A stretch of DNA of 39,471 nucleotides from Candidatus Izemoplasmatales bacterium. Lineage in GTDB: Bacteria; Bacillota_I; Bacilli_A; Izemoplasmatales; Hujiaoplasmataceae. Under the pieces are notes generated by a model that was not told where the DNA came from, did no database searches, and saw only the letters and a list, made by a program, of their open reading frames with translations. How positions within the stretch are numbered: the first letter of the stretch is position 1; each line of letters starts with the position of its first letter. This document shows, piece by piece, positions 4,487 through 22,403 of this stretch. The translations under genes were made by a program, and so were the position numbers. The DNA is taken from assembly GCA_028691315.1 (NCBI GenBank), contig JAQUZN010000007.1:5157-44627 (forward strand), read 5' to 3'.

Positions 4487-5470
4487 CTATTTATTTCCCA
4501 TTGTTAAAGCCATTACAGCCTTGGCTGTATGAAGACGATTTTCCGCTTCTTGATAAACGATGGAATGAGGACCATCAATAACTGAATCCACAACTTCATT
4601 TCCTCTGTCAGCAGGTAGTGCATGCATATATTTAACATCAGGTGAAGCTAGTTTTATCATTTCTTCAGTACATTTCCAAGATTTATAACTCTCTAATAAT
4701 TCATCAACAACTGCATTTGACTGATTATTAACCCAGCTTCCCCAGTTCTTAGGAATGACAATGTCTGCACCAGTAAATGCTTCTTCCATATTATGAGTAA
4801 TTTTAAAAGTTCCACCATTGTCTAAAGCATTTTTCTTCGCTTTTTCAATAGCCCAAACAGGTAAGTCATATCCTTCAGGATAAGCTAAGGTTACATCCAT
4901 TCCGTAACGTGGGAATAATAAAATTTGTGTTAACGGAACGCTAATTGGTTTTTTATGAGTTGTTGCATAAGCCCAGATAATCGATACTTTCAAGTGTTTT
5001 GTCGTTTTCGATACTTCTTGAATGGTCATTAAATCGGCTAATCCTTGCATAGGATGATATAAATCATCTTGTAAGTTCATAATTGGTACAGTAGAATTCG
5101 CCGCTAACTCTCTTAAATATTTATTTCCAACTTCCCAAAAACAATTACGACAAGCAATACCGTGTCCATATGAAGATAAAATGACAGCTGTATCTTTTGC
5201 GGATTCACCATGCGAAATTTGCATTTTCGATGTGTCTAAGAAAACGCCATGTCCGCCAAGATGAGCAAGACCAGCTTCCATTGAATTTCTGGTTCTTGTG
5301 GATTGCTCAAAGAACATCAAAAAAGCTGTTTTGTTCGTTAGAAATGGAGTCTCTACGTTGTTTAAAAAATCATGTTTCATTTGAAACGAAACTTCAAGCA
5401 ACTTATCTATTTCGGTTTTCGTCCATTCTTCAAGTGTAATAAAATGTCTTCCTTTAAAAAGTGGTTCCAT
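4487..5470 (-). CDS. ygeW: Knotted carbamoyltransferase, YgeW type
   Basis: A 327-aa transcarbamylase. The carbamoyl-phosphate site is intact (FFEQSTRTR at residues 53-61; YHPMQ at 138-142 with LADLMTI following). The segment MDVTLAYPEGYDLP and the C-terminal MHALPADR and EAENRLHTAKA motifs place it with the YgeW branch of aspartate/ornithine carbamoyltransferase-like proteins. YgeW is linked to anaerobic purine breakdown, where a carbamoyl group is thought to be transferred to phosphate to give carbamoyl phosphate for ATP synthesis. It is somewhat shorter than E. coli YgeW (396 aa). RBS AAAGGAG. It is the last gene of the operon, 15 bp after ygeY. The carbamate kinase needed to harvest ATP is not in the window. 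Confidence 0.85.
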   Translation of the reverse strand: MEPLFKGRHFITLEEWTKTEIDKLLEVSFQMKHDFLNNVETPFLTNKTAFLMFFEQSTRTRNSMEAGLAHLGGHGVFLDTSKMQISHGESAKDTAVILSSYGHGIACRNCFWEVGNKYLRELAANSTVPIMNLQDDLYHPMQGLADLMTIQEVSKTTKHLKVSIIWAYATTHKKPISVPLTQILLFPRYGMDVTLAYPEGYDLPVWAIEKAKKNALDNGGTFKITHNMEEAFTGADIVIPKNWGSWVNNQSNAVVDELLESYKSWKCTEEMIKLASPDVKYMHALPADRGNEVVDSVIDGPHSIVYQEAENRLHTAKAVMALTMGNK

Positions 5471-5485
5471 ATATTTTCTCCTTTA

Positions 5486-6694
5486 TTATTTTTTTAGTTG
5501 TTCTAAATATACTAGTGGTAAAGCCGCATACATTGCGCAAGCTTTGACAAGTTCTGATTTAAACGTTTTTTCATTTGGAGCGTGTGCTTCTTCTTCATGC
5601 CCTGGTCCAAAACCGATACAAGGAATTTTATGGCGTCCCATAATTGAAACAGCGTTGGTTGAAAATGTCCACTTATCAACGATTGGTTTTGAGTTAAATA
5701 GCCCTTCAAAACTCTTTACCGCAGACTGAGTGACAACATGTTCAAGTGGTAAAACCCAGGTAGGAAAATAAGACTCTGTTGGATAAACTAGTCCAGTATA
5801 AGCTGGTCTTGCATAATCATACATTTCTACTACTGCATTTGCTTTTTTTACTGAAGTTAATGCTCTGATTTCTTCAAGTGCACTTAAATAGGTTTCTCCA
5901 TCTGTAAGACGGCGGTCTATCGATATAACACATCCATCAGCAACAGCACATCTAGAAGGCGATGAATAAAAAATCTCACTAACAGTTAAAGAGCCTTTTC
6001 CTAAGAATGCATTGTCAAGTAAATGTTTATGTAACTCTTGTAATTCAAGCAAAATTGGTGCCATTTTAAAAATAGCATTATCTCCACGTTCAGGCGCAGA
6101 ACCATGACAAGAAATTCCTGAAACGGATACTTTGATTTCCATTCTGCCTCGATGTCCACGATATATTCTACAACTTGTTGGTTCGGTTATAACAACAAAC
6201 TCTGGCTTGATTTTATCTTCTTCAATTATATATTGCCAACAAAGACCATCACAGTCTTCTTCTTGAACTGTACCAGTAACTAATAATGTATAGTCACCTT
6301 CTAAGTGCAAGTCTTTAATGATTTTTCCTGCATATACCATTGAAGCCATTCCACCTTCTTGATCAGAACTGCCTCTACCGTAAATAATTTCTTCATCTTC
6401 AAAGCCAAGATAAGGATCAAACTTCCAGTTTTTGATTTCACCGATGCCAACTGTATCAATGTGAGCATCCATTGCGATTAAATGCGAGCCATGACCAATT
6501 CGGCCAACAATATTTCCCATTGGGTCAATCATAATTTCATCAAATCCAACTTTTTCCATCTCTAGTTTTATACGTTGAATTACAAGTTTCTCATCGCAAG
6601 ATTCAGAAGGGATGGCAATCATATCTCTTAAAAAATTAGTGATATCTTGTTTATATTTTTCTGCTAACAAACTTATTTCTTTAAATGGTATCAT
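5486..6694 (-). CDS. ygeY: YgeY-type M20 metallohydrolase
   Basis: A 402-aa M20-family amidohydrolase/peptidase. The di-zinc site is readable: AHIDTVG (His78, Asp80), [10 protein letters not shown] (Asp111), EED with catalytic Glu145 and neighbouring Glu146, ITEPTS (ligand acid) and [10 protein letters not shown] with the final His. The dimerisation insert [12 protein letters not shown] lies mid-protein. The wording of these motifs fits the YgeY branch, which occurs with YgeW and molybdenum hydroxylases in purine-degradation clusters and is inferred to cleave an amide or ureido bond of an opened purine ring. The start ATG at 6694 follows AAAGGATT and is 2 bp from the previous stop, indicating translational coupling. 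Confidence 0.85.
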
Positions 6695-6696
6695 GA

Positions 6697-8067
6697 TTAA
6701 TCCTTTCTCATTGCTTTGATTAACTCATCATAATGATGGATTTTATCATATTCTTTATCCCAAAAATCAAGGTTTTTCATAGAGTCTAAATATTCCTTAG
6801 AATATCCAAATTTTATCCAATCATTTTCTTTTTGTTTAAATAATTTATCTTTTTGTTCTTTTGAACGATAATCAAAGATATCTTCAGTTCCAATTCTTCT
6901 AAAAACATCCACAAACCATCTCTCAAGTACATTATCAGAAGTTTCCAAATATCGACGTTCTAAATCTTTAATAACAGAGTCATAACGATCATATCCATCA
7001 GTCGCGATGGTAACAATATTGTCATTTGGTCCTAAGCGTAAATATTTAGCCATTTTAATGGCGCCGATAATATTACAAATCCCTGATACCCCAAATAATT
7101 CAGTCATTGATTTAGCGACAGACTCATCTACGCCATTTTCAACTAATATTTTTGCGCCATCGTGTAATAGTTTAAGTCCTCTTACAGAATCATCATCTTT
7201 TATTAATGCGATAAAATCAGTATTTAAAACATTATGAATTAATGTACACATTTTATCGCCAATACCTTCAATACGATGTTGACCTCTGCCACCACTTGAT
7301 AATGTAGGACACTCATATGGTTCTAGTGCGACAACTTTCGCTTCAGGAAACACTGCTTTGATTTGATCGCCTGCCGCAAGGGTACCAGCACTACCAGGAG
7401 CAGACGTGAAACAAGCAATTCTAGAATTACCGATGCCTTTTACTGCTTCAACGCAACTATTACCAGTCACATGGCGATGAAAACGGTAATTAGGAAGTAA
7501 TTCAAATTGAGCTAAAGACCTGTTGTTTGGATTTTTCTTTAGTTCGTTATTTCTTTCTAAAGTCAAGATAACATCTGATTCTGTTCCTGGCGTCAAATCA
7601 AGTTTTGCACCATATCGTTTTATTCGGTCATATCTTTCTTTTGACATATTGTCTGGCATAATAACAATAGCTTCATATTTCATTAAGTTACAAATGTAAG
7701 ATACTCCAATGCCAAAATTACCAGTGGATGGGCCAAGTATTGTATGCTTACCTGCGAGAATTTCTCCATCTACTGACCCCTCTATAAGTGTCGAATATGC
7801 TGGCCCTACTTTATGAGACCCAGATGGAAAATAAGTGCCTAGTAAAACAACAATATTAGCATCTACACCAGTTAATGCTTTTGGTAAAACAATTTTGTTT
7901 ACTTCGTTTTTGTCGTTTTTCCATGTAATGTTAAATAAATTAAATGGATCTAATTCGTTTTTTTCTTTTGCTTGTAATGCTTTTTCTCTTACTTCTTTGT
8001 CGATTATAGAAGGATGTAACATCTCTTCATATGTCGGTCCAAATGGAATCTTTCGCAATTTAATCAC
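6697..8067 (-). CDS. Fold-type II PLP enzyme, cysteine-synthase-like; function unknown
   Basis: A 456-aa PLP enzyme of the cysteine synthase/tryptophan synthase beta superfamily. The Schiff-base lysine is probably Lys86 in SGSHKVGPA, the STGNFG loop matches the substrate-carboxylate loop, and [13 protein letters not shown] the PLP-phosphate loop. The C-terminal 100 residues are extra relative to cysteine synthase. It overlaps the upstream threonine-synthase-like gene by 4 bp (GTGA); GTG at 8067 is the first start, but TTG at 8058 is better spaced from AAGGTGATT. The position in the operon corresponds to ygeX (2,3-diaminopropionate ammonia-lyase), but the active-site sequence is not that of classical YgeX. 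A lyase or beta-replacement acting on an amino acid product of purine degradation is inference. Confidence 0.75.
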
Positions 8068-9305
8068 CTTATATTTTCTTTCAAATAGATTTGTAAATCT
8101 TCTAAATTTGGTAAAACATTTCTTTCTTCTTTAAATGCAGATAAAGCACTTGTAGTATCTTTTAACCCATTGCCTGTAATAATCACTGTTACAGTCTCGC
8201 TTTTCAAAATAAAGCCTTTTTGTATTGCTTTTAAATATCCAGCAAAAGATGCACTTGCGGCTGGTTCTGCAAATATCCCTTCTTTTGCGCCAAGTTCTTT
8301 TAGTGCAGACAAAATTTCTTCATCTGTTACAGATATCATCATTCCTGATGATTTTGTTATTGCGTTTATCGCTTTAACGGGGTTTCTTGGAATCCCCACA
8401 GCAATACTATCAGCAATCGTGTCCTCTTTTGATTCTTTTAAAGAACAAGAATCATTAAATGCTTTGACAAATGGAGAGCACCCTTTTGCTTGAATGCCAA
8501 GAAGTTTAGGGATTTTCGCAATAAGGCCTAACTGAAATAAGTCATAAAATCCTTTATAAACCGAAGCGATTGTACAACCATCACCAACAGAAACACATAC
8601 CCAATCACAAACATTAAATTCGAGTTGTTCGGCTATTTCTAGAGCAACAGTTTTCTTTCCTTCAACCAAATGTGGATTGATCGCTGCATTGCGATTATAC
8701 CACCCATACTTGTTTATAGCAAGTTTTGACAAGGTGAATGCAGCTTTATAATCGCCATCGACTTTTACAAGAGTAGTGCCAAATGCTTTTAATTGAGCTA
8801 GTTTTCCAAGAGGTGCTCTTTTTGGAACAAATATCACAGTTTTTAAACCGCATTTAGCGGCATTTCCAGCAAGGCTTGAAGCAGCATTACCTGTTGATGA
8901 ACATGCTATCGTATCATATCCCAACTCTTTTGCCTTCATTACTGCAACAATAGATGCCCTGTCTTTTAACGAGGAAGTTGGATTTTGTCCATCGTCCTTG
9001 AAGTATAGTTTATTAACTCCCAGTGTTTTTTCAAAATAAGATGAACTGTAAAGGGGACTCCATCCTACGCTTAGTGTTGATTTTGGGTCGACAGAGGTCA
9101 CTGTCAAAAAAGGAAGATATCGCCAAATGGAATATTCTTGATTGTTTTTAAAATAGTCAAGATTTACTTCTTTTTTCATTTGTTCGTAATCAAACCTAAT
9201 ATCCAAAATTCCTAATTCACCACACTCAGGACATGTCATATATGTGGATGTTTTAGGAAAAGTTTTGTGACAAAGTGTACATTCATAATCTTTTACATAT
9301 TTCAT
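8064..9305 (-). CDS. Threonine-synthase-like PLP enzyme with N-terminal zinc ribbon
   Basis: A 413-aa fold-type II PLP enzyme. Residues 9-28 form a CxxC...CxxC ribbon (Cys9, 12, 25, 28), as in some threonine synthases. The PLP lysine is Lys114 in NPTSSLKDRA; SSTGNAASSLAGNAA is the substrate loop; VSVGDGCTIASV the phosphate loop. By family it would be called ThrC (O-phosphohomoserine to threonine), but there is no homoserine dehydrogenase or kinase nearby and it sits 1 bp after adenine deaminase inside a purine operon, overlapping a second PLP enzyme. A role in deaminating a diamino or hydroxy-amino acid from purine breakdown is therefore as likely. RBS GAGG lies within the end of ade. Confidence 0.7.
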   Translation of the reverse strand: MKYVKDYECTLCHKTFPKTSTYMTCPECGELGILDIRFDYEQMKKEVNLDYFKNNQEYSIWRYLPFLTVTSVDPKSTLSVGWSPLYSSSYFEKTLGVNKLYFKDDGQNPTSSLKDRASIVAVMKAKELGYDTIACSSTGNAASSLAGNAAKCGLKTVIFVPKRAPLGKLAQLKAFGTTLVKVDGDYKAAFTLSKLAINKYGWYNRNAAINPHLVEGKKTVALEIAEQLEFNVCDWVCVSVGDGCTIASVYKGFYDLFQLGLIAKIPKLLGIQAKGCSPFVKAFNDSCSLKESKEDTIADSIAVGIPRNPVKAINAITKSSGMMISVTDEEILSALKELGAKEGIFAEPAASASFAGYLKAIQKGFILKSETVTVIITGNGLKDTTSALSAFKEERNVLPNLEDLQIYLKENIR

Positions 9306-9306
9306 A

Positions 9307-11025
9307 TTAAGCCTCGTCTACTTCTAACGGAATCAATTTGAATGCTTCCACATCGAATAGTCCAAAATCAGTCACTTTTAATTTTGGAATGACGGGAAGT
9401 GATAAAAATGCTAAATTTAAGAAAGGATCGTCAATGTCATTTGATACACCAAGTTTTCTTGCATGCGAATTCATTAGGTTTAGCCTATCACATACATGTG
9501 TATAGTCTTTTTGCGTCATCAATCCAGCAACTTCAAGTTCTAAAGAAGAAAGAACTTTCCCTTGACTGACAATAGCGATTCCGCCCTTGATTCGGTTAAT
9601 CTCATGAAGTGCGACCATCATGTCTTCATCAGAATCACCGATAATAACAAGATTATGTGAATCATGAGCAATTGTCATTGCGATTGCGCCGTTTTGAAGG
9701 CCATATCCTTCAATTAATGCCAAACCAACATTACCAGAAAAATGATGTCTTTCAACAATCGCTAGTTTCAAAATGTTGCGATGTTTTTCTTGAATGTATA
9801 AGCCATTTTCAACAAGGACTTCTCGAACAAGATTAGTAGTTGTTACATTATTTTTCTCAAAGCCAATAACGTGTACGATATTTGATTTTAATGGAATTTT
9901 AAAGGAGATTTTGGGAATATCAATATGAACAGATTCAAATACGTTATTATTTTCATAGATAAATTGATTCGCCAAATATTTTTTACCGTCTGCGACAAGT
10001 TCTCCTTTTTTATACACTATTGTTGGTTCAATGTTATATAAGTCGTTAAACACAACTATATCAGCAAAGTAGCCTGGCGCAATTGCCCCATATTTTTCAA
10101 GATGATAAGCAGTTGCAGTGTTAATCGTTGCCATTTGGATAGCAGTTATCGGATCAAGTCCAAGCAAAATGGCTTTATTAATATTAAAATTTATGTGTCC
10201 TTCTTTTACAATGTCTTTTGGATGTTTATCATCAGTACAAAATAATAGACGATGACTAAACTTTTCACTAATAAATGGAGTTAGTGCTTCTACATTTCTT
10301 GTAGCTGAACCTTCTCTCAGCATTACATACATGCCTTTTTCAACTTTTTCTAGCATTTCTTCTTTCGTAGAGGATTCATGGTCTGTTTTAATTCCAGAAA
10401 GAAGATAACTGTTTAATTCAAGACCCGTTATAAAAGGTGCATGTCCATCCTTCACTCGATCTGAAAAGAGGTCGATTTTATCATAAATATCCTTACCACC
10501 AGATATCACATTTGGATAGTCCATCACTTCGCCAAGTCCAAAGCATTTTTTTGTTTTTTCAAAATCAATGATTTCTGTTTTTCCTATCTTTTTTCCAGTT
10601 GTTTCATAGATTGTAGATGGAACACAGGAAGGCATCATCATAAAAACATCTAGAGGTGAAAGTTTTGCCGAAGACATCATAAAGTCAATTCCTTCTACGC
10701 CACACACATTTCCGATTTCATGAGGATCCGCAATAATTGATGTTGTTCCTTTTGGCATAACAAGTTTCGCAAATTGACTTGGAACAAGCATACTTGACTC
10801 AATATGAACGTGGGCATCAAAAAACCCAGGAGCGACAAATTTTCCTTCAAGGTCAACTTCCTTTTCTCCATTAAATGAACCGATTCCTAATATAAGGGAA
10901 CCTGCAATAGCAATGTCCCCTTTTTGTAACGAATGGGTAAAAACATTTACGATTGTCGCGTTTTTAAGAACCAACGGTGCTTTTTCTTTTCCTAAAGCCA
11001 TTTTTGAAAGTTGTGCTTGATTCAT
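9307..11025 (-). CDS. ade: Adenine deaminase
   Basis: A 572-aa amidohydrolase of the AdeC family, converting adenine to hypoxanthine and ammonia. Characteristic segments: FFDAHVHIESSML (residues 68-80, metal-binding His-x-His), TTSIIADPHEIGN, the FCTDDKHP segment and the C-terminal AHDSHNLVIIGDSDEDM and KGGIAIVSQGK motifs. Length is normal for the family (about 570-600 aa). ATG at 11025 follows GAGGTGAATTC. It sits between the FAD subunit of the second molybdenum hydroxylase and the PLP enzymes, feeding hypoxanthine to the hydroxylases. Cytoplasmic. Confidence 0.95.
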   Translation of the reverse strand: MNQAQLSKMALGKEKAPLVLKNATIVNVFTHSLQKGDIAIAGSLILGIGSFNGEKEVDLEGKFVAPGFFDAHVHIESSMLVPSQFAKLVMPKGTTSIIADPHEIGNVCGVEGIDFMMSSAKLSPLDVFMMMPSCVPSTIYETTGKKIGKTEIIDFEKTKKCFGLGEVMDYPNVISGGKDIYDKIDLFSDRVKDGHAPFITGLELNSYLLSGIKTDHESSTKEEMLEKVEKGMYVMLREGSATRNVEALTPFISEKFSHRLLFCTDDKHPKDIVKEGHINFNINKAILLGLDPITAIQMATINTATAYHLEKYGAIAPGYFADIVVFNDLYNIEPTIVYKKGELVADGKKYLANQFIYENNNVFESVHIDIPKISFKIPLKSNIVHVIGFEKNNVTTTNLVREVLVENGLYIQEKHRNILKLAIVERHHFSGNVGLALIEGYGLQNGAIAMTIAHDSHNLVIIGDSDEDMMVALHEINRIKGGIAIVSQGKVLSSLELEVAGLMTQKDYTHVCDRLNLMNSHARKLGVSNDIDDPFLNLAFLSLPVIPKLKVTDFGLFDVEAFKLIPLEVDEA

Positions 11026-11040
11026 GAATTCACCTCAAAT

Positions 11041-11889
11041 TTATATTAATTTCATACTGTCTATAAATGCACCAATCATGTTTTTTGCAACTTGTAGGCG
11101 GTATTTTTTATTTGATCTTTGATCATCAATTGGTTGAATAAAAGGTGTGTACCTTGAAATGATTTCTTCTCTTTTTGAACGAATTGTACAAACTGATAAT
11201 CCAGTATATTCTTTTTCCAATTCTTTTCTTCTTAGGACAGTTTGATAGATTGCGCCAAGTGCAATTCTGAAATCTGTTACAATACCATTTTCAACAGTAT
11301 ATGCTCCAGCAAAAGAAACTTTAGAAATAGCATCTGCCTTACGGCCGCCAACCTTCACGAAAGAAGTAAATGAAAATGATTTTTTTGGAATAATTATTTC
11401 TGTAATCAGCTCATTATCCTTTAGTAAAGTTTTTCTAACACCAGTAATAAAGTTTTCTATTGGAATAATACGCTTTTGATGAAGGCTTTCCACTTTGACT
11501 GAAGCATCTAATAAATAAAGCGTTACAAGTGAATCACCAGCAGGAGACGCGTTCCCAATATTGCCGGCAATCGTCGCTACATTTCTTATTCCAGGAGAAG
11601 CCATTTCATGAATAGTATCTTTTAATAACTGCGGTACAAATTCATGATGAGACAAAGTTTCAAGTGAAGTCAGGCTACCGATATATACATTCTCATTGTC
11701 AAATTTAACATACTTACATTCACTTAAATTTGAAATGTATAAAATATCTTTCTTAAAGTCGACCGGTGTCTCACTAACTGCCCGGTTTTGAATCATTAAA
11801 TCAGTCCCTCCAGCAAGTAGTAAGAATGGTTTTTCATTCAAGTACATAAGCGCTTCTTCTAGCGATTTAACGATAATTTGATCTACCAT
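11041..11889 (-). CDS. Molybdenum hydroxylase FAD subunit (XdhB type)
   Basis: A 282-aa FAD-binding subunit of the xanthine dehydrogenase/CO dehydrogenase family, which passes electrons from the 2Fe-2S clusters to an acceptor. The two flavin loops are readable: LLAGGTDLM (residues 24-32) and PGIRNVATIAGNIG followed by ASPAGDS (about 93-117). The CO-dehydrogenase-type C-terminal domain is also present. Size matches E. coli XdhB (292 aa). It overlaps the 2Fe-2S gene by 7 bp and is followed by adenine deaminase 16 bp later. It belongs to the downstream hydroxylase, whose gene order is Moco, Fe-S, FAD. Confidence 0.9.
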   Translation of the reverse strand: MVDQIIVKSLEEALMYLNEKPFLLLAGGTDLMIQNRAVSETPVDFKKDILYISNLSECKYVKFDNENVYIGSLTSLETLSHHEFVPQLLKDTIHEMASPGIRNVATIAGNIGNASPAGDSLVTLYLLDASVKVESLHQKRIIPIENFITGVRKTLLKDNELITEIIIPKKSFSFTSFVKVGGRKADAISKVSFAGAYTVENGIVTDFRIALGAIYQTVLRRKELEKEYTGLSVCTIRSKREEIISRYTPFIQPIDDQRSNKKYRLQVAKNMIGAFIDSMKLI

Positions 11890-12356
11890 AAACCATCACC
11901 ATCTTTGGATGCTTTTTGTATTGCCTCAATAATCATTTGATAGCCTGTACAGCGACACAAATTACCAGATAACCCAATTTTAATTTCCTCATCAGATGGT
12001 GTAGGATTTTCATTTAATAACGATTCACTCGCAATAATCATTCCCGGCGTACAAAAACCACACTGTACACCACCAGTTTGTTCAAAGCTATCTTTAATAA
12101 CGCTGTATCTTTTGGTTTCACTAAACCCTTCGATGGTTATGACTTCTAATCCATCTACATTTGCAAGTGGAACACTACAAGAATTGACAATCTTATGATT
12201 TAGAAGAACTGAACAAGCACCACATTCACCTTCACCACATCCTTCTTTAACGCCAGTGAGGTGGTATTCATTGCGAAGAACATCTAGTAGTCTTAATCCA
12301 GGGTTTCCAACGTATGTAACTTTTTTTCCATTCAGAATGAACTTAATCGTTGCCAT
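11883..12356 (-). CDS. Molybdenum hydroxylase 2Fe-2S subunit (XdhC/CoxS type)
   Basis: A 157-aa electron-transfer subunit with two [2Fe-2S] clusters. The plant-ferredoxin-like cluster ligands are Cys40, 45, 48 and 60 (KEGCGEGECGAC...NSC); the helical C-terminal cluster uses Cys99, 102, 134 and 136 (QCGFCTPG and NLCRCTG). All eight cysteines are present. ATG 12356 overlaps the Moco gene by 14 bp. The name XdhC here follows E. coli XdhABC and should not be confused with the XdhC-type maturation factor at 18588-19430. Confidence 0.93.
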   Translation of the reverse strand: MATIKFILNGKKVTYVGNPGLRLLDVLRNEYHLTGVKEGCGEGECGACSVLLNHKIVNSCSVPLANVDGLEVITIEGFSETKRYSVIKDSFEQTGGVQCGFCTPGMIIASESLLNENPTPSDEEIKIGLSGNLCRCTGYQMIIEAIQKASKDGDGLW

Positions 12357-14436
12357 TATTCATCAACTCCATAATCTTTTCTGGCGTCATTGGGATTGAA
12401 AATACTTTTCGTTTAATTGCCATTTCTATCGCTTTTGCGACGGCTGGCGCGCCTCCCACTAGCGTTAATTCACCAACACCTTTTGCGCCATATGGTCCAA
12501 GAGGATATGGATTATCCATAATGATGGTTTCCATTTTAGAAATATCTTTTGAAGTTGGAATGATATAATCAGTGAAGTTTTTTTGCATTATTTTACCTAG
12601 AGAATGTTCCATAACTTCAAGATATCCATAAGCAATGCCTTGGGTAATTCCTCCATCAGCTTGTCCCATAACGATTCTCTCATCAATTGCTTTACCTAAG
12701 TCATATACACTCCAAACACCTTCTATCGTTGTTTGATATGTGATTGGATTAACACTGACTTCAACGATATTTACTCCCCATGAGTATGCGGGGTAAGCGT
12801 CTCCTGTAAAAGTGGATTCATCCCACTTAATATATGATGGTTGAACGTAATTTTCTTCTAAAGTTATTTCTTCTTCATTTATATGATCTTTTAATTTTAA
12901 TGCACATCTTGCGACTAAACCGCCCACAATCATGATAGTTCTTGATGCGACAGTAGGTCCAGAATCTGGCACAAAATCAGTATCAGGTAAGTTATAGATT
13001 ATTTTTTCGATGGGCAACTTTAAGATATCAGACACGATTTTTTTCATTGTCGTTCTAACGCCTTGACCCATATCTACAGCTGCAATTAAAATTTCAATAA
13101 ATCCATCTTTATTTTTTTTAAGTTTGACTTTAGCTTTAATATGAGATGCTTCTCCACTTCCAGTAAATCCACATCCATGTAAAAACCAACTCATCCCAAT
13201 TCCTTTATAGAGATTATTCTTTGAGTATTCGTTTGCTTTATCTTTATAATTGGAAAGAGCCATCGCTTTTTCAATCATCTGAGGCATAATGATTGGGTCT
13301 CGGAAAAGACCACTCGTTGAAGTATGATCGTTTTGTTTTGCAAGATACTTTAATCGAAGTGCTAACGGGTCAATATTTAGTGTTTTGACGATATGTTCAA
13401 TAAACATTTCTATCGCAAACAACATTTGTGGAGCTCCAAATCCTCGAAATGCGCCGTTTGGTACAGTATTCGTAATATACACGTCACCAGTGACATCTAA
13501 GTGCTCTATCGTATAAGCTCCAGTACAAGCAATCAATGCTCTTGACAAAACCACACCACTTAAACCAATATTGGCACCAGCATCAATTCCTACAATCGCT
13601 TTTAATCCTGTGATTTCATTTGATTCATTAACTGAAGCAATCATTTTTATCTTGGAAGGATGTCTTTTCGTTGTCGAAATCATATCTTCTTCACGTTCAT
13701 AAATCATTTTAATCGGTTTATTGACTTTCTTTAACGCGACCGCAAGTTGACACGCAAGTAAAGAAGGAAACTCTTCTTTTCCTCCAAATGCGCCACCAAC
13801 TGTTGCTTGGATAACTCTGATATTTTCGGGTTTTGAGTTCAGAGCTAATATGAGGGCGTTTTTTACATAATATGGACACTGAATTGACCCGATCAGAGTC
13901 ACTTTTTCGCCTTCTGTATATCCAATAAATCCTTGAGGCTCGATATAAGCTTGTTCTTGATAGGATGTCGCATAATCGAATTCTATTAGTTTATTCGCTT
14001 TTGAAAAAGAATTTTCTAATGATCCTTTTGAAAAATGGTAATGGACTTTAGAATCTGTCCATTCAAAGATAGGCTCTTCTTCAACATAATGTACTTTGAT
14101 CGATTTTAAAATTGATTCAACTTTTGCTTTGTCTGGCCCAACTACTAGTAGAATGGGTTCACCCAAATAGGTTACTTTATTTTCAGGGAAAATGACTTGG
14201 TCATCAAAAATAATTTTAACCACATTTTTACCAGGAATATCGTGATAATCAACGATAAAATATCCATCTTCTAAAGTTGGAATATCAATCAATGAAATCG
14301 TTCCTTTGGCAATTATAGAACGAAGGGTTCTAGCGTATTGCATATCTTCAAAAAAATAGTCACTAGCATACAATGCTTTTCCACTACATTTTTCTTCATG
14401 ATCAACTTTTTTAATTGATGTCGAAATGTCTTTCAT
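12343..14436 (-). CDS. Molybdenum hydroxylase Moco subunit (XdhA type), probable purine hydroxylase
   Basis: A 697-aa catalytic subunit binding the molybdopterin cofactor. Key loops: VGGAFGGKEE (residues 213-222), GAFRGFGAPQ with the active-site-type Arg331, DMGQGV, and GPYGAKGVGE whose last Glu656 corresponds to the invariant catalytic Glu of xanthine oxidoreductases. EREEDM (about 247-252) aligns with the region that holds the substrate-binding Glu of xanthine oxidase, followed by RHP. These fit a purine hydroxylase, with hypoxanthine or xanthine as likely substrates, but substrate cannot be fixed by eye. RBS AAAGGAGGAG. Selenium dependence of such clusters is known elsewhere but leaves no direct mark in this protein. 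Confidence 0.88.
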   Translation of the reverse strand: MKDISTSIKKVDHEEKCSGKALYASDYFFEDMQYARTLRSIIAKGTISLIDIPTLEDGYFIVDYHDIPGKNVVKIIFDDQVIFPENKVTYLGEPILLVVGPDKAKVESILKSIKVHYVEEEPIFEWTDSKVHYHFSKGSLENSFSKANKLIEFDYATSYQEQAYIEPQGFIGYTEGEKVTLIGSIQCPYYVKNALILALNSKPENIRVIQATVGGAFGGKEEFPSLLACQLAVALKKVNKPIKMIYEREEDMISTTKRHPSKIKMIASVNESNEITGLKAIVGIDAGANIGLSGVVLSRALIACTGAYTIEHLDVTGDVYITNTVPNGAFRGFGAPQMLFAIEMFIEHIVKTLNIDPLALRLKYLAKQNDHTSTSGLFRDPIIMPQMIEKAMALSNYKDKANEYSKNNLYKGIGMSWFLHGCGFTGSGEASHIKAKVKLKKNKDGFIEILIAAVDMGQGVRTTMKKIVSDILKLPIEKIIYNLPDTDFVPDSGPTVASRTIMIVGGLVARCALKLKDHINEEEITLEENYVQPSYIKWDESTFTGDAYPAYSWGVNIVEVSVNPITYQTTIEGVWSVYDLGKAIDERIVMGQADGGITQGIAYGYLEVMEHSLGKIMQKNFTDYIIPTSKDISKMETIIMDNPYPLGPYGAKGVGELTLVGGAPAVAKAIEMAIKRKVFSIPMTPEKIMELMNNGND

Positions 14437-14450
14437 TTGTGCTCCTCCTT

Positions 14451-15527
14451 TTATTTAGAGTTGATCGCCTTCACCGGACATTTTGAGATGCACAAACCGC
14501 ATCTAAAACACATGTCTTTATTAAAAGTAATTTTGTCAGTAAAATCAATTGCAAAATAAGGACAAATATTCATACAAAGCATACATTTTATGCATTTATC
14601 TTCGTTTAATGTTGGAACATTTCCAACATACTCAACGTCTTTATTTAATTTAGTTTTCTTTACTTCTTCGATGCTTGAAAAACCATATTTTTCTAAAGTT
14701 GCTGGCAAATCCAATATGATTTTAGAATATAAGTCTTTCCCTTTAAGTAACGCACCTGACAACATTTGAACTGCAGACGCACCTGCGAGCATGAATTCAA
14801 TTACATCATCCGCTGACTTTATTCCACCTACGCCAATGATGGTTAGTTCTGGAACTGCAGACTTAATTTTATAAATCGTCGCAAGAGCAATCGGTTTAAT
14901 TGATGGTCCGCTTGTCCATACAAAGCCAGAATCACTTCCGTAGACGATTTTTCTAGAAGCGATATCTATTTTAAGGGATGGTCCTAAAGAATTAATAGCG
15001 ACAATTCCAGATGCTCCAGCATCGTATATCACTCTAGCGAACTCTTCTGGATTTGGAATATGAGGACTAATCTTCATATACAGTGGTTTCTTAGTGTATT
15101 TTTTAATGGTTAAAACCGTATCTTTAATAACATTCAAGTCTTTTCCTACATAATGAGTCGATACTTCAAACATATCCGCAAATGGTTCTAATAGTGGAAT
15201 TAAAACTTCCATATCTTCTTTAGAGTATCCCACACTAATAATTAGTGGTCGATCTTTGATTTTCTGAAATGATGGTAAAAATTCATTAACCCAAGTTAAG
15301 TACGAATACTCACTCCAAAGTTCAGAATTCATTACAAATTCCTTATCTCCATAAATACATGGCTTTGGAATGTGCGGCTCTTTGGTCGAAATAGTTTTTG
15401 TCACGACTGCGCCACAGTCTTGATGAATCATAAATTCAAGTTTTTTTGCATCACCAACCAAAGGTCCACTTGCGGGCATTAATGGATTTTTAAGGGTGAT
15501 TCCATCAAATGTTGTTTGTAAATTCAT
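14451..15527 (-). CDS. PreA-like dihydroorotate-dehydrogenase-fold protein with two 4Fe-4S clusters
   Basis: A 358-aa protein: an FMN-binding TIM barrel (residues 1-300; PLMPASGPL near 15-23, IGVGGIKSADD and a following GASAVQM phosphate loop) fused to a C-terminal 2[4Fe-4S] ferredoxin (CIKCMLCMNICP and CFRCGLCISKCP). This is the layout of PreA, the pyrimidine-reducing subunit of bacterial dihydropyrimidine dehydrogenase, and resembles parts of the larger YgfK found in E. coli purine clusters. No PreT/NAD(P)H subunit is present. The usual cysteine- or serine-bearing catalytic loop is replaced by a short segment around FEVSTHYVG (120-128). It starts directly after the ssnA stop (RBS AGAAGGA). 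Reductive or oxidative chemistry on a ring intermediate is inferred. Confidence 0.8.
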   Translation of the reverse strand: MNLQTTFDGITLKNPLMPASGPLVGDAKKLEFMIHQDCGAVVTKTISTKEPHIPKPCIYGDKEFVMNSELWSEYSYLTWVNEFLPSFQKIKDRPLIISVGYSKEDMEVLIPLLEPFADMFEVSTHYVGKDLNVIKDTVLTIKKYTKKPLYMKISPHIPNPEEFARVIYDAGASGIVAINSLGPSLKIDIASRKIVYGSDSGFVWTSGPSIKPIALATIYKIKSAVPELTIIGVGGIKSADDVIEFMLAGASAVQMLSGALLKGKDLYSKIILDLPATLEKYGFSSIEEVKKTKLNKDVEYVGNVPTLNEDKCIKCMLCMNICPYFAIDFTDKITFNKDMCFRCGLCISKCPVKAINSK

Positions 15528-16823
15528 CTAGATTCCTTCTTTCTGAAGTTTCTTCCAACAAGCTTTGGAAACTGACTTTCCAGTATTAATCGCTTTTGAT
15601 AGATCTTTTGATACTTTATAATTTGATACTTCGATATTTCCAGCTATAATCACAGTTTCAGGCTTGAAGCTGTTGAAAAGTCCGTAAAATAGATGCCCAA
15701 AGATATTAGATTTATTTACCTCTGTAATACTCTCATATGGCAAAATTAACATATCTGCGACGTAATGTTTTTTTATTTGACCTAGCGGCATTTTAAGTAA
15801 ATGCGATGTGTAATCATATGTATTAATGATTATTTGCAAAACATCATCTAATGTAAATAAATTAGGACTTTTGGATTGCAAATGCATTGCATAGTATAGA
15901 CTTAAATATTCATTTGCCATGGATGGAGATAATCCATCATTACCAATAATCACATTGATACCTTTTTCTAAGAATTTACATACTGGAGCGAGCCCAACAC
16001 CGTTGTTCATATTTGATGAGACATTCACACATACTGTCACATCATTTTTCTTAATCAAATTCAGTTCTTGTTCGTTAAGAAAGATTCCATGAACAAATAA
16101 GCTTTCTTTTCTTAGCAATCCAAAGTCATTCAGTCTATTTACAATACGTTTATGATACTTGGCGATGGAATCATCTTGATCCATCATACTTTCAGCAACA
16201 TGAATGTGGATTGGTGCTGTTGTCTCTTTAGATACTCTTTGTAAAGTATCATCTGAAAGCGTCATAGATGCATGTAGTCCAAACAATCCACTTGTAAATT
16301 CATTATGATTGTTATTGATAAAATGATTGTTTTCATCAATACATTTTGATGTATCAAATCTATCACTTGTTTCAAAACAAAAGATTCCTCTTAAATGGGC
16401 CGTGTCGACGACTGCCTTTTTTAGTTGTTCTAAAGAACCAGTAATTTCACCAGATGCATGATGATCAATAATCGTTGTTACACCATTTTTTAGAAAATCA
16501 CTAGCAAAGGCAATTCCACTGTAATATACCATTTCTAAATCTAAAGACCTATCTAACTTCCACCACAACTGATCAAGAATTTCTTGAAAATTCCTTGGCG
16601 AAAACGGTAGGCTTAATCCTCTAGCAAAAGCAGAATATAAATGTGTGTGTCCACAAACTAGTCCTGGCAAGACAATTTTACCTGTTCCGTCAATTATTTC
16701 GCAATCAAATTTTGGCATGTTACCCATAAGACCAACTTCGTGAATAACATCCGAAAAAAGAATATATCCATCTTCTATATAGGTCACAAAGTCATAGATT
16801 CTTGCATGCACGATACATTTCAT
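15528..16823 (-). CDS. ssnA: SsnA-like amidohydrolase
   Basis: A 431-aa metal-dependent amidohydrolase of the SsnA/chlorohydrolase group. Metal ligands: His59 and His61 in GHTHLYSAFARGL, the later HIHVAES and NDGLSPSMANE with the catalytic Asp. IDHHASGE is characteristic of SsnA. SsnA is a fixed member of ygeW/ygeY/ygfK purine-degradation clusters and is thought to hydrolyse an imine or amide of a ring intermediate; guanine-deaminase-like activity is an alternative. Its ATG overlaps the hydantoinase stop by one base (TAATG), indicating coupled translation. Confidence 0.85.
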   Translation of the reverse strand: MKCIVHARIYDFVTYIEDGYILFSDVIHEVGLMGNMPKFDCEIIDGTGKIVLPGLVCGHTHLYSAFARGLSLPFSPRNFQEILDQLWWKLDRSLDLEMVYYSGIAFASDFLKNGVTTIIDHHASGEITGSLEQLKKAVVDTAHLRGIFCFETSDRFDTSKCIDENNHFINNNHNEFTSGLFGLHASMTLSDDTLQRVSKETTAPIHIHVAESMMDQDDSIAKYHKRIVNRLNDFGLLRKESLFVHGIFLNEQELNLIKKNDVTVCVNVSSNMNNGVGLAPVCKFLEKGINVIIGNDGLSPSMANEYLSLYYAMHLQSKSPNLFTLDDVLQIIINTYDYTSHLLKMPLGQIKKHYVADMLILPYESITEVNKSNIFGHLFYGLFNSFKPETVIIAGNIEVSNYKVSKDLSKAINTGKSVSKACWKKLQKEGI

Positions 16824-18127
16824 TAGTAATCCTCACTTTTTATAAATTGGCCCTCAATAAGCATATTATTTTGGTCTTCGATAATAATATTTCCTCTTAA
16901 TAAAACAAATTTAATGATTTCATCTGTTGGATACCCTTGATATACAGAGTAATCGCATTTTGAATGAAGTTTTTCAATTGCACTATTCGCTAATTCATAT
17001 ATAACTAAATCAGCATCATATCCTTCTTCAATTTTTCCTTTTTTACCTAAGAGATGATGAATAGATGCGGGATTCAATGTCATTTTATCTATTGCTTGTA
17101 CATTAAATAAGTGATACATCAAATGAAAACTGCTTTCAATTCCGCCAATGCCAAGCGGAATATCTTTTAACAACAAATGATTTTTCTCTTTCTTCATAAA
17201 TGAGCAATGATCGGTTCCAATTGTATATACATCCGAAAATAGTGAAACCAACTTAACTAATTCTTCTTTTCTACGAATTGGTGGAGCCATTGTATAAAGA
17301 TATCCATTTTCTTGTTTTAATAGGTCATTAGACAGATTAAAATATTGTGGACAACTTTCTACAAAGAATTTTTTGTTTAAAATATCGGAATACTGTTCTT
17401 TTAGTTTTTGGAGTGTTTCTCCAGAACTAAGGTGAACCATATATAAATACCCACCATATTTTTTGACAAAAGAAGCCAGCTTTAGCGCTTCTTTTGTTTC
17501 GCTAATACTTGGCCTCGAAATCGGAAGATCTTGATACGTAAAATCTGGATTCAAATCAATTAAATCATCATTTTCAATGTGAGCTAAAATTAAAATATGA
17601 TGAATTTGGGATAATTTAAGTAATTCAATAATATCTGCATCATAAGTCCTTCGGTTAGAATTTGAATACGTTGTAAATAGTTTTATTGAAGTTAACCCTA
17701 GTTCCTTCACTTTAAGAACATATTCTTCTAAAGAACCAGTAGGGTTTTTAATTGTCGCATGGAATTTATAATCACAGTGACAATCTTTTGCTTCATTAAG
17801 TCGAGAATAAAAACTTTTTTCGAGGTCACTAGCACAGGATGTTGGTTCTAAAAAATCAATAATTGTTGTAACCCCACCATAAAGGCCAGATATACTACCC
17901 GAGGCAAAATCATCGACAGAATGAATTGTTTTCAAATCTAAAGCCATATGAGTATGTGGATCAATGAGGCCAGGAATAATCATTTTATGATTAGCGTCAA
18001 TGACTTGTTTAGATGCGTAAATTTCATCTGAAATTTTCGCAATCTTTTCGTCTTGAAGATAGATATTCGTTTTAATAAAAGCATGATTGATATAAACTTT
18101 GCCATTGATAATACTTTTATCAAACAT
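16823..18127 (-). CDS. hydA: Hydantoinase/dihydropyrimidinase-like ring-opening amidohydrolase
   Basis: A 434-aa cyclic amidohydrolase. The start is taken as ATG 18127 (MFDKSIINGK) because AAGGAG lies about 9 bp upstream; an in-frame ATG at 18145 overlaps that RBS. Metal-binding residues: HTH at 58-60, Lys149 (carboxylated bridging lysine, in IKLFTTYS), His183 in LAHIEND, a later VHLSSGET His, and TDHCSF with the catalytic Asp. Family members open hydantoin or dihydropyrimidine rings. In this operon it corresponds to HyuA/YgeZ, inferred to open a ring derived from urate or xanthine. Confidence 0.85.
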   Translation of the reverse strand: MFDKSIINGKVYINHAFIKTNIYLQDEKIAKISDEIYASKQVIDANHKMIIPGLIDPHTHMALDLKTIHSVDDFASGSISGLYGGVTTIIDFLEPTSCASDLEKSFYSRLNEAKDCHCDYKFHATIKNPTGSLEEYVLKVKELGLTSIKLFTTYSNSNRRTYDADIIELLKLSQIHHILILAHIENDDLIDLNPDFTYQDLPISRPSISETKEALKLASFVKKYGGYLYMVHLSSGETLQKLKEQYSDILNKKFFVESCPQYFNLSNDLLKQENGYLYTMAPPIRRKEELVKLVSLFSDVYTIGTDHCSFMKKEKNHLLLKDIPLGIGGIESSFHLMYHLFNVQAIDKMTLNPASIHHLLGKKGKIEEGYDADLVIYELANSAIEKLHSKCDYSVYQGYPTDEIIKFVLLRGNIIIEDQNNMLIEGQFIKSEDY

Positions 18128-18145
18128 TTTACACATCTCCTTCAC

Positions 18146-19456: not shown

Positions 19457-20086
19457 CTATAAAACAATCGTTAATACAATAGCTAAAGCAAGCAAAGGTA
19501 ATGCAAGAATTGGTTGCTTTTTAAATTGAAATTTAATTTGTTTATCCCATAAAAGGTTTAGATAAAATAAAGCAGTTGCAATAAACCCGCTAATAACTCC
19601 ATAGTATAGAGCAAAATTTGCCATTGAACCAAAAGATGTTATCTGAGGTGCACTAAATCCAGTTAATAGTGATTGAATAGCTAGCGTGCCTAGAAAGACA
19701 CCTCTCCATCCAATACTTGCGATTGGAAGGGCAACAACTTTTGCAACATGGTTGTTCTTATCAAGTAATGATATAACAGCAAGTACAAATAGTGATTCTA
19801 CTACGATAGAAATCATTGGATTAATTGTTTTCCAAATCGATATCGATGGCATAAAGAAATTAACCGACTTGATAACTGCCGCAATAAACCCAACACCTAG
19901 TAAAGCTACTTTTGAGTTTAGTGCTTTGTAACTACGATACAAGATTACTGATGCTATCGGAAACATAATCGTTCCTGAGATTAAAGCGGGAACAAAATGA
20001 AGGACATATCCTAAAGAAGCTTCTAAGATGCCCCAAATGACTCCAAAGTACAGTATAGTTGTTAATTTTACAAGTTTATTTTTCAT
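19457..20086 (-). CDS. Polytopic membrane protein of unknown function in the hydroxylase operon
   Basis: A 209-aa very hydrophobic protein with about six predicted membrane segments (roughly residues 8-30, 33-52, 60-78, 90-107, 116-138, 150-172, and a C-terminal 190-209 segment), short loops and a few lysines. No enzymatic motif is seen. Size and small-residue-rich helices recall ECF-transporter S components, but no EcfT or ATPase lies nearby, so this is only a resemblance. Its ATG overlaps the end of the Moco subunit gene by 11 bp and it precedes the maturation factor. Uptake of a purine, molybdate or a selenium compound is possible but not shown. Confidence 0.6.
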   Translation of the reverse strand: MKNKLVKLTTILYFGVIWGILEASLGYVLHFVPALISGTIMFPIASVILYRSYKALNSKVALLGVGFIAAVIKSVNFFMPSISIWKTINPMISIVVESLFVLAVISLLDKNNHVAKVVALPIASIGWRGVFLGTLAIQSLLTGFSAPQITSFGSMANFALYYGVISGFIATALFYLNLLWDKQIKFQFKKQPILALPLLALAIVLTIVL

Positions 20087-22403
20087 TTTTAATTTTCTCC
20101 TTTATATTAAGTGCATTTCTAATCTTCTCTGGTGTCATAGGTAACTGGGTGAGGCGAACTCCGAGTGCATTTTCAATCGCATTAGCTAGTGCTGCAGGTG
20201 GAGTATCAATACCAATTTCTCCAACTGATTTTGCGCCAAAAGGGCCACTTTCTTCATAACTTTTCGCAAATTCAGTTGTCAAATTTTTAATTTCCAAACG
20301 AGTAGGAACTTTATAGTTTAATAAATCAGAAGTGATATTTTTTCCCTTGGAAGTGATAACGACATTTTCGTATAATGCCATTCCAAGTCCTTGGACAATT
20401 CCGCCTTCTACTTGACCTTTAGCCAGTTTAGGATTAATGGTTGTTCCGCAATCAACGACAGAAACATAATTCACAATCTCAATTTCACAAGTTTCTTTAT
20501 CAATCAAGATTTCAATAAATCCCGCCATAAATGGTGGTGGTGATTTATGGCCAACATAACTTGAAGTTGCGACTAATTGTTGTTGATCTTCGTTATATGT
20601 CAAACGATTACTTAAATCCACAAGGGTAATGCTTGATTTGTTTGATTTATTTGTGAAAATAATTCCATCATAAATTATGTCAATATCTTCGCAATTAAGG
20701 ACTTTACTTGCTTCTTCAAAAAGCATTGATTTCATTTTTTTCGCTGCTCTTAAAACCGCGTTTCCAGAAACATATGTTGTGGAAGATGCATAAGCACCCG
20801 TGTCAAAAGGTGTCAAATCAGTATCTGATGAATAAACAATGATTTTATCTAGAGAAGTTTGTAACTCTTCTGCAGCAATTTGTGCTAAAACAGTATCAGA
20901 ACCTTGCCCAATATCGGTTGCGCCAATCATTAAATTATAAAATCCACCATCATTTAATTTGATTGTAGCACTTCCCATATCAATGTATGGAATACCACTT
21001 CCTTGCATAGCGATTGCCATACCAACGCTACGGATTTTTTGTTCGTTTTCAACTTTGCACGGATAAATATTATCCCATCCAATTAGTTCTTTTCCCCTTT
21101 TCACACAAAACTCAAGTTTACAAGAGTCCATATTCATTGCGGTACCTTCTGTACCTTCACCCATAATCGCAAAAATTGGGGATGTTTCATTTTCCTTTAT
21201 CATATTCTTTTGACGGAATAATATCGGATCGATTTCAAGTTTATGGCATAACATATCGATTGCTGATTCAAGGGCATAATTTCCTTGAATAGCTCCATAA
21301 CCTCGATATGCTCCAGCGGATGTATGATTGGTATATACGACATGCCCATGAAAACGGACAGAATCTACTTTATTATACAAAGGCAATACTTTAGATCCTG
21401 CGACCATAAAAACAGTTAACGCATGTTCTCCATAGGCTCCAGTATCTGATAATACATAACAATCAATTGCCTTTAGAATTCCATCTTTCGTTGAACCAAG
21501 AGTAATATCCAAACGCATCGGATGTCTTGTATAACTTGATTCAAACACTTCTTTTCTCGAGTAAATCATTTTTGATGGTTTTCCAGTAGTGTAGGTTATA
21601 TAGCTAACAAACATTTCACCATGTAAAGCTTGTTTACCACCAAATCCACCACCAACGCGTGGCTTAATAACTCTGATTTTACTTAAAGGAATTGATAAAG
21701 TTTGGCTTAATATTCTTCGAACATGGAAAGGAGTTTGAGTCGAAGAATATAACACAAGACGATTTTGATAATCGATTCTTGCATTCACTGTATGAGGTTC
21801 TAACATTACATGTGCTTGTGCTTGGGTATAAAATGACTGTTTAATCACTACTTCAGAATTCTTAATGGTTTCTTCTACATCACCCACGTGCATTGCATAA
21901 CTTGCAGCGATGTTTCTAAGTGGCTCAAACCCAATAGGAAACATATCATGAATTTCTGGTTCAGGATGTATAACACTTAAATTATCCATGGCTTTTTCAA
22001 AATCTAAGACTGGTTCTAATAATTCATATTCAACATCTATCATGGATAGGGCTTCATCACATATAGCATCAGTAGATGCTGCAACAACGCATACTTCATC
22101 CCCAATATATCTCACAAACTCGTCTAAGATAAACTTATCATGCGGTGAAGGTTCTGGATATCCTTGTCCCGCTCTTGTGAAAGGAATTCTTGGAAAATCT
22201 TGGTAAGTTAATACACATTCAACACCTTCCAGTTTCTTTGCTTTTGAAGTATCAATTTTCGATATTTTCGCATAAGGATGAGGGCTTCTTAATACTTTAA
22301 CAATCAAAGACTGGTCCATAGCATAATCATCAGAATATGCTGTTCTGCCCATCATAATTCCCTTACCATCAACAGATGGATTTATATTATTAACTACCTT
22401 CAC
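20076..22403 (-). CDS. Molybdenum hydroxylase Moco subunit, second enzyme (XdhD-like)
   Basis: A 775-aa Moco-binding subunit. Loops: VGGGFGGKQ (residues 250-258), AGAYRGYGAIQ with the conserved Arg, ATDIGQGSD, and GPFGAKSVGE with the catalytic Glu729. It is longer than the first Moco subunit, and the two differ in most loops, so they are not recent duplicates. With its small 2Fe-2S partner (150 aa) it adds up to about the size of E. coli XdhD (956 aa), in which the two are fused; the order mocA-FAD-FeS-Moco also recalls E. coli ygfJ...ygfM-xdhD. Start is GTG at 22403, overlapping the previous stop (GTGA), RBS GGGTGATT. Substrate is not known; a purine or urate-derived ring is inferred. Confidence 0.87.
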   Translation of the reverse strand: MKVVNNINPSVDGKGIMMGRTAYSDDYAMDQSLIVKVLRSPHPYAKISKIDTSKAKKLEGVECVLTYQDFPRIPFTRAGQGYPEPSPHDKFILDEFVRYIGDEVCVVAASTDAICDEALSMIDVEYELLEPVLDFEKAMDNLSVIHPEPEIHDMFPIGFEPLRNIAASYAMHVGDVEETIKNSEVVIKQSFYTQAQAHVMLEPHTVNARIDYQNRLVLYSSTQTPFHVRRILSQTLSIPLSKIRVIKPRVGGGFGGKQALHGEMFVSYITYTTGKPSKMIYSRKEVFESSYTRHPMRLDITLGSTKDGILKAIDCYVLSDTGAYGEHALTVFMVAGSKVLPLYNKVDSVRFHGHVVYTNHTSAGAYRGYGAIQGNYALESAIDMLCHKLEIDPILFRQKNMIKENETSPIFAIMGEGTEGTAMNMDSCKLEFCVKRGKELIGWDNIYPCKVENEQKIRSVGMAIAMQGSGIPYIDMGSATIKLNDGGFYNLMIGATDIGQGSDTVLAQIAAEELQTSLDKIIVYSSDTDLTPFDTGAYASSTTYVSGNAVLRAAKKMKSMLFEEASKVLNCEDIDIIYDGIIFTNKSNKSSITLVDLSNRLTYNEDQQQLVATSSYVGHKSPPPFMAGFIEILIDKETCEIEIVNYVSVVDCGTTINPKLAKGQVEGGIVQGLGMALYENVVITSKGKNITSDLLNYKVPTRLEIKNLTTEFAKSYEESGPFGAKSVGEIGIDTPPAALANAIENALGVRLTQLPMTPEKIRNALNIKEKIKNEK

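What the first reader, a model, noticed from the sequence alone, without database searches (positions are those of the whole stretch)
6697..9305. Tandem of two unlike PLP enzymes in the place of YgeX
Classical clusters carry one diaminopropionate ammonia-lyase (YgeX). Here two overlapping genes encode a cysteine-synthase-like protein (PLP Lys86 in GSHKVG) and a threonine-synthase-like protein with a zinc ribbon (Lys114). Neither has the YgeX active-site wording and no threonine pathway genes are near. They may split the final deamination into two steps, form a hetero-oligomer, or produce a different amino acid end product.
Basis: partly seen in the sequence, partly recalled or inferred. Interest (0 to 1): 0.65.

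Follow-up and report, generated by a model that had tools for sequence, protein, structure and literature searches.

The report
Two odd enzymes ending urate breakdown
In this anaerobe's uric-acid-degrading gene cluster the expected last enzyme (YgeX) is missing and two other vitamin-B6 enzymes sit there: one, a former threonine synthase that has lost its phosphate-binding site, appears to have taken over the job, and the other is an overlooked companion, found across many bacterial phyla, that may make serine.

Summary
At 6697-9305 (minus strand) two PLP genes overlap by 4 bp inside a reductive urate cluster (split XdhD, UacX, SsnA, HyuA, carbamoyltransferase, YgeY), and the genome has no YgeX. 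"Two genes in place of YgeX" is only half right. In 395 genomes of the class the threonine-synthase-like gene (THRCL) and YgeX are never found together, and together they account for every YgeY genome except one cut by a contig end: THRCL looks like YgeX's replacement. The cysteine-synthase-like gene (PALPA) accompanies both: 56 genomes with THRCL, 3 with YgeX. THRCL is not threonine synthase. It has lost T88, S155, R160 and N188 of ThrC in all 27 aligned members, 35 of 41 THRCL genomes lack homoserine dehydrogenase, and a same-genus genome carries a separate full Thr operon with a classical ThrC. PALPA is a divergent cysteine-synthase fold. Its invariant Asp271 aligns with Asp232 of F. nucleatum cysteine hydroxyl-lyase (Cys + H2O -> Ser + H2S), suggesting 2,3-diaminopropionate + H2O -> serine + NH3. 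PALPA has at least 587 relatives in Chloroflexota, Thermodesulfobacteriota, Actinomycetota, Halanaerobium and others, usually near THRCL. A published survey scored "YgeX" as PF00291, which both proteins match. No enzyme activity is shown.

The parts
8064..9305 (-). THRCL: zinc-ribbon threonine-synthase-fold PLP protein (413 aa), proposed terminal lyase in place of YgeX; PLP Lys114
6697..8067 (-). PALPA: cysteine-synthase-fold PLP protein (456 aa), PLP Lys86, invariant Asp271 at the Fn1055 Asp232 position; proposed beta-substituting companion enzyme
5486..6694 (-). YgeY (TIGR03526, 685 bits, cut-off 321.5)
4487..5470 (-). OTC-type carbamoyltransferase (327 aa) in the place of knotted YgeW (185 bits against YgeW cut-off 453)
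9307..11025 (-). adenine deaminase (TIGR01178 over cut-off)
11041..14436 (-). XdhD-like molybdenum hydroxylase split into FAD (11041-11889), Fe-S (11883-12356) and Mo (12343-14436) subunits
14451..15527 (-). dihydroorotate-dehydrogenase/PydA-like flavoprotein with ferredoxin tail, UacX type
   Evidence: gene type named in PMC12507026
15528..16823 (-). SsnA-like aminohydrolase (363 bits, below the SsnA cut-off of 444)
16823..18145 (-). HyuA-like hydantoinase (best model D-hydantoinase)

Best explanation
The window is a reductive urate-degradation cluster in which YgeX, the 2,3-diaminopropionate (DAP) ammonia-lyase, has been displaced by THRCL. THRCL is a threonine-synthase-fold PLP enzyme whose substrate-phosphate pocket is gone; I infer that it eliminates ammonia from DAP (or a close beta-amino/hydroxy alanine) to give pyruvate. 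PALPA is not half of YgeX but a second conserved enzyme at the same node, used with either lyase. It has a cysteine-synthase active site with an acid (Asp271) at the leaving-group/nucleophile position. I infer that it exchanges the 3-amino group of DAP for water, giving serine + NH3 (a branch to serine/one-carbon metabolism). Shown: gene content, displacement pattern, pocket loss, Asp alignment, cross-phylum coupling. Inferred: both reactions. Separate odds: THRCL is not ThrC, about 0.95; THRCL takes YgeX's step, about 0.7; PALPA is an independent companion, about 0.75; PALPA makes serine, about 0.35.
For: Displacement: of 395 class genomes, 60 carry PALPA, 58 THRCL, 6 true YgeX and 63 YgeY. 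THRCL and YgeX are never in the same genome, and every YgeY genome has one of them except G187, whose contig is cut 200 bp from PALPA. PALPA plus YgeX are adjacent in G002, G015 (two copies) and G038. Outside the class, 20 PALPA genomes were searched: 16 have THRCL, 3 have YgeX (one of them has both), 2 have neither. THRCL versus ThrC: T88, S155, R160 and N188 of T. thermophilus ThrC, identical in five solved ThrCs, are A, A, L/M and D in 27/27 THRCL; in 52 further THRCL, mostly from other phyla, T88 is always A, S155 is G/A and R160 never R. 35 of 41 THRCL genomes lack homoserine dehydrogenase, and ThrB agrees. A same-genus genome has LysC-Asd-Hom-ThrB plus a separate 485-aa ThrC (L104). ThrC, including housekeeping copies, forms a clade apart from THRCL (SH-aLRT 97). 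PALPA: model pLDDT 88.5, nearest solved folds CysK and beta-cyanoalanine synthase. Asp271 is invariant in 30 PALPA, EGIGD is in 80/80 long forms, and it aligns with Fn1055 Asp232, with the D232N entry showing N in that column. Fn1055 is a cysteine hydroxyl-lyase (PMC12940168). In Synergistaceae L186 the order is YgeY, YgeY, THRCL, serine hydroxymethyltransferase, PALPA.
Against: No activity data exist. Displacement in the class is largely sorted by family, so independent events are few (family f5, plus Desulfuromonadales G455 outside the class); G458 carries both THRCL and YgeX. The Asp match rests on a short alignment between distant proteins, and such an Asp could also bind the beta-amino group in a lyase or racemase. 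The serine hydroxymethyltransferase neighbour is a single clear case. E. coli runs the pathway without PALPA (published gene table), so its step is not indispensable. That T88, S155, R160 and N188 bind the substrate phosphate is from memory of the T. thermophilus ThrC structure; the computed part is that they are invariant in ThrC and lost here.
Confidence: 0.5

Rival explanations
1. Relay: PALPA turns DAP + H2O into serine + NH3, and THRCL then deaminates serine to pyruvate + NH3, so the YgeX step is split in two.
For: Asp271 matches the water-using Fn1055. After threonine synthases and a cysteate synthase-like entry (CapA2), THRCL's nearest folds are serine/threonine deaminases and serine racemases. 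The genes overlap and the pair is linked across phyla (29 of 36 loci with at least 8 kb on both sides). Threonine synthases can have a deaminase side activity (PMC12172450).
Against: PALPA is also kept next to YgeX, which needs no serine intermediate. THRCL and YgeX exclude each other as if they did the same reaction.
Confidence: 0.24
2. PALPA is a DAP (or albizziin) racemase or the lyase for the other enantiomer: HyuA is D-specific and THRCL may take only one isomer.
For: The R (D) configuration of the pathway intermediates is proposed and unresolved (PMC12990295). Racemases of this fold type exist.
Against: PALPA is kept beside YgeX, and E. coli YgeX already takes both isomers (PMC12507026). 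The nearest folds are beta-substituting CysK-type enzymes, not racemases.
Confidence: 0.1
3. PALPA is a sulfide-dependent cysteine synthase that uses DAP in place of O-acetylserine.
For: Nearest solved relatives are CysK.
Against: An ordinary CysK is already in the genome (C60). Asp271 replaces the Ala of the CysK GIGAG loop.
Confidence: 0.07
4. THRCL and PALPA form an obligate hetero-oligomer, one subunit perhaps regulatory.
For: Overlapping, co-conserved genes of the same fold superfamily.
Against: Both keep the PLP lysine. PALPA also occurs with YgeX instead of THRCL. In many Chloroflexota loci the two genes are separated by about 1 kb or lie on different contigs. No complex prediction was available.
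Confidence: 0.06
5. THRCL is the housekeeping threonine synthase.
For: It passes the broad thrC model (209 bits, cut-off 167) and is the only ThrC-like protein in this incomplete genome.
Against: The four substrate-site residues are lost. 35 of 41 THRCL genomes have no Hom. A same-genus genome has a separate ThrC in a full Thr operon; this genome's own LysC-Asd-Hom contig (C48, 3.3 kb) breaks just before the place of ThrB-ThrC.
Confidence: 0.03

Closest known systems
YgeX, 2,3-diaminopropionate ammonia-lyase (TIGR03528/NF006058)
   Same: Same cluster position, beside YgeY in the reductive urate pathway; fold type II PLP enzyme; THRCL and YgeX replace each other between genomes
   Different: Neither protein passes the YgeX models. 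THRCL reads STGNAA where this clade's YgeX reads SDGNHG, and it has an N-terminal zinc ribbon.
Threonine synthase ThrC, short type (6cgq, 2zsj, 2d1f, 1uim)
   Same: Fold and PLP lysine, about 33-36% identity by structure alignment
   Different: T88, S155, R160, N188 positions changed in every member; urate-cluster context; no homoserine pathway in most hosts
Cysteine synthase CysK / cystathionine beta-synthase
   Same: PALPA fold, the Gln187 loop and the PLP lysine
   Different: 133 bits against a CysK cut-off of 351; GIGDK in place of GIGAG; extra N- and C-terminal segments; HKVG lysine motif
F. nucleatum Fn1055 cysteine hydroxyl-lyase (5b53/5b55)
   Same: Asp at the same alignment column, within the shared HRIEGI(G/S)D stretch
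   Different: 340 aa; acts on cysteine; no urate cluster known for it
Reductive urate pathway of E. coli and C. difficile (PMC12507026)
   Same: XdhD, UacX, SsnA, HyuA, carbamoyltransferase and YgeY are present
   Different: YgeX absent, THRCL and PALPA present; OTC-type enzyme in place of knotted YgeW

Membership tests
Threonine synthase (ThrC) | passes the broad thrC model TIGR00260 | tested here: met
   209.4 bits, cut-off 167.1
Threonine synthase (ThrC) | substrate-site residues T88, S155, R160, N188 (1uim numbering) | tested here: not met
   invariant in 5 solved ThrC; A, A, L/M, D in 27/27 THRCL; three of the four positions counted and also lost in 52 more
Threonine synthase (ThrC) | host has the homoserine pathway feeding it | tested here: not met
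   35 of 41 THRCL genomes lack Hom; ThrB over cut-off only where Hom is present
Threonine synthase (ThrC) | O-phosphohomoserine to threonine activity | not testable with these tools
   needs assay or complementation
YgeX / DAP ammonia-lyase | passes TIGR03528 or NF006058 | tested here: not met
   PALPA 22.3 and 29.5 bits (cut-offs 532 and 276); no NF006058 match in this genome
YgeX / DAP ammonia-lyase | SDGNHG active-site motif seen in this clade's YgeX | tested here: not met
   THRCL STGNAA, PALPA STGNF/STGNY
YgeX / DAP ammonia-lyase | DAP to pyruvate + 2 NH3 | not testable with these tools
   inferred for THRCL from mutual exclusion with YgeX
Cysteine synthase (CysK) | passes the CysK model TIGR01139 | tested here: not met
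   133 bits, cut-off 351
Cysteine synthase (CysK) | CysK fold | tested here: met
   Foldseek top hits CysK and beta-cyanoalanine synthase, TM (target) about 0.8
Cysteine hydroxyl-lyase (Fn1055 type) | Asp at the Fn1055 Asp232 position | tested here: met
   D232N entry shows N in that column; invariant in 30 PALPA and 80 long forms
Cysteine hydroxyl-lyase (Fn1055 type) | serine formed by beta-replacement with water | not testable with these tools
   needs assay
Reductive urate cluster | XdhD, YgfK/UacX, SsnA, HyuA, YgeW/UacY and YgeY homologues together | tested here: met
   (SsnA and the carbamoyltransferase are divergent, below their cut-offs)
Reductive urate cluster | YgeX | tested here: not met

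The most novel reading that the evidence does not exclude
PALPA is a new enzyme, a 2,3-diaminopropionate hydroxy-lyase (DAP + H2O -> serine + NH3). It gives many anaerobes from at least six phyla a purine-to-serine route that E. coli lacks, coupled to a phosphate-pocket-less threonine-synthase relative that serves as DAP lyase in most of the PALPA genomes searched.
Probability: 0.27. Interest if true: 0.72.

Novelty: new variant of a known kind. Interest (0 to 1): 0.56.

Why it matters
The reductive urate pathway was worked out only in 2025 and bears on gout and gut uricolysis. The published survey scored YgeX as Pfam PF00291, a family that both proteins here match, so it could not tell YgeX from THRCL or PALPA. 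If the displacement is right, the end of the pathway differs in a large set of anaerobes, a family annotated 'threonine synthase' is misnamed there, and PALPA is an uncharacterised enzyme with a concrete testable reaction. Threonine-pathway predictions based on these THRCL genes would also be wrong.

Tried and rejected
(1) PALPA as one half of YgeX: rejected because PALPA sits beside intact YgeX. (2) THRCL as the genome's ThrC: rejected. (3) OrtB (ornithine 2-amino-4-ketopentanoate thiolase): considered because of size and fold; no OrtB model among the NCBIfam matches shown (lists for THRCL cut at 25), and no aminomutase-sized neighbours noticed in the ORF lists examined. (4) SbnA (DAP synthesis): 60 bits against 350. 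(5) Open-literature search for a threonine-synthase- or cysteine-synthase-like gene in urate clusters found none; three key papers (Liu 2023, Liu 2025, Kasahara 2023) are not in the library. (7) Two script errors (file paths) and one wrong-strand alignment were redone. (8) The G101 PALPA hit is an ordinary CysK (310 aa, no cluster) and was left out of the counts.

Full report
What is there. On the minus strand, 8064-9305 (413 aa, 'THRCL') and 6697-8067 (456 aa, 'PALPA') overlap by four bases and lie between adenine deaminase and YgeY with gaps of 1-2 bases. Neighbours by NCBIfam: an OTC-type carbamoyltransferase, YgeY, adenine deaminase, a molybdenum hydroxylase in three subunits, a PydA/UacX-type flavoprotein, SsnA-like and HyuA-like hydrolases, then a second molybdenum hydroxylase and maturation genes. 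This is the gene set of the reductive urate pathway (PMC12507026), whose last enzyme is YgeX. YgeX is missing: the genome has only three PALP proteins, these two and a CysK.

Distribution. The same 395 genomes of the class were searched with PALPA, THRCL, the YgeX model and the YgeY model. PALPA occurs in 60, THRCL in 58, YgeX over its cut-off in 6, YgeY in 63. All 60 PALPA genomes have YgeY; 56 have THRCL and 3 have YgeX; none has both. The one left over (G187) has PALPA 200 bases from a contig end, and the two THRCL genomes without PALPA also end in contig breaks. Reading the neighbourhoods shows PALPA next to a true YgeX in L034, L036, L037 and L038 (identity of YgeX checked for L034, 499 bits, and by the model search in all), and next to THRCL elsewhere. 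Genomes with YgeX but no urate cluster around it (G008, G154, G257) lack PALPA. The pattern is that of THRCL replacing YgeX, with PALPA tied to the urate cluster whatever the lyase.

Beyond the class. The best 80 include Chloroflexota, Thermodesulfobacteriota, Actinomycetota, Myxococcota, Pseudomonadota, Synergistota and Halanaerobium kushneri ATCC 700103. THRCL lies in the same locus in 55 of 80, and in 29 of 36 with at least 8 kb on both sides. Seventeen genomes chosen because their PALPA locus lacked a nearby lyase, plus three controls, were searched whole: 16 of the 20 have THRCL elsewhere or nearby, three have YgeX (one, G458, has both), two MAGs have neither. Many Chloroflexota loci add an OTC-type and sometimes an ATC-type carbamoyltransferase, carbamate kinase and HyuA.

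THRCL is not threonine synthase. It passes the broad thrC model and folds like ThrC (pLDDT 91.5; Foldseek), but residues identical in five solved ThrCs are replaced in all 27 aligned THRCL: T88 to A141, S155 to A208, R160 to L/M213, Q164 to K217, N188 to D242 (1uim numbering). T88, S155 and R160 are also lost in 52 further relatives, mostly from other phyla. That T88, S155, R160 and N188 contact the substrate phosphate is recalled from the T. thermophilus structure and was not found in the library. Homoserine dehydrogenase is absent from 35 of 41 THRCL genomes, and ThrB over its cut-off follows Hom. The same-genus genome G263 has a complete LysC-Asd-Hom-ThrB operon with its own 485-aa ThrC (L104). 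This genome's Thr genes sit on a 3.3-kb contig that ends before ThrB-ThrC (L105), which explains why no second ThrC is seen. In a tree of 46 proteins all ThrC, long and short, are one clade (SH-aLRT 97) apart from THRCL; THRCL is one side of a branch with weak support (68, quick search only).

PALPA. The model (pLDDT 88.5) is nearest to CysK and beta-cyanoalanine synthase, but the protein scores 133 bits against a CysK cut-off of 351. The PLP lysine (HKVG), STGN loop, Gln187 and the N1-side Ser328 are conserved (roles of these residues by analogy with CysK). Where CysK reads GIGAG, PALPA reads GIGDK; Asp271 is invariant in 30 sequences and in 80 of 80 long forms. A short phmmer alignment places it on Asp232 of F. 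nucleatum Fn1055, and the D232N entry 5b55 shows Asn in that column. Fn1055 turns cysteine and water into serine and H2S, and Asp232 is a key residue (PMC12940168). Hence the proposal that PALPA replaces the 3-amino group of DAP by water. One Synergistaceae locus puts serine hydroxymethyltransferase between THRCL and PALPA (L186), a hint only.

Limits. No activity, structure or complex was measured. The displacement within the class is partly inherited by descent, so the number of independent swaps is small (at least two: family f5, and Desulfuromonadales G455). The relay model (PALPA makes serine, THRCL deaminates it) remains a live rival; PALPA's presence beside YgeX is the main argument against it. 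Three central papers are not in the open library, so a prior description of these genes there cannot be ruled out; none was found in the papers searched.

Noticed in passing
window 4487-5470: The carbamoyltransferase is a short OTC-type protein (327 aa), not the knotted YgeW (396 aa); it scores 185 against the YgeW cut-off of 453. No carbamate kinase gene was identified among the window genes scanned.
   Followed up: partly
L119, L172, L183 and other Chloroflexota loci: Clusters with an ATC-like and an OTC-like carbamoyltransferase plus carbamate kinase beside THRCL and PALPA; possibly both ureido groups are recovered as carbamoyl phosphate/ATP.
   Followed up: partly
L186 2925-6941: Serine hydroxymethyltransferase lies between THRCL and PALPA, behind two YgeY homologues.
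   Followed up: partly
L035 5368-11851 (G249): A genome of the same order carries the long PALPA form and a knotted YgeW, while members of its genus carry the short PALPA; the forms seem interchangeable.
   Followed up: partly
window 20076-23646: A second, differently ordered three-subunit molybdenum hydroxylase (Mo, Fe-S, FAD) with an XdhC-family maturation factor and MocA-type cytidylyltransferase.
   Followed up: no
L112 2212-3237 and L113 5688-6716: A short YgeX-like gene (about 342 aa) paired with a divergent YgeY-like gene and no purine genes nearby; perhaps a stand-alone DAP or albizziin pathway.
   Followed up: no
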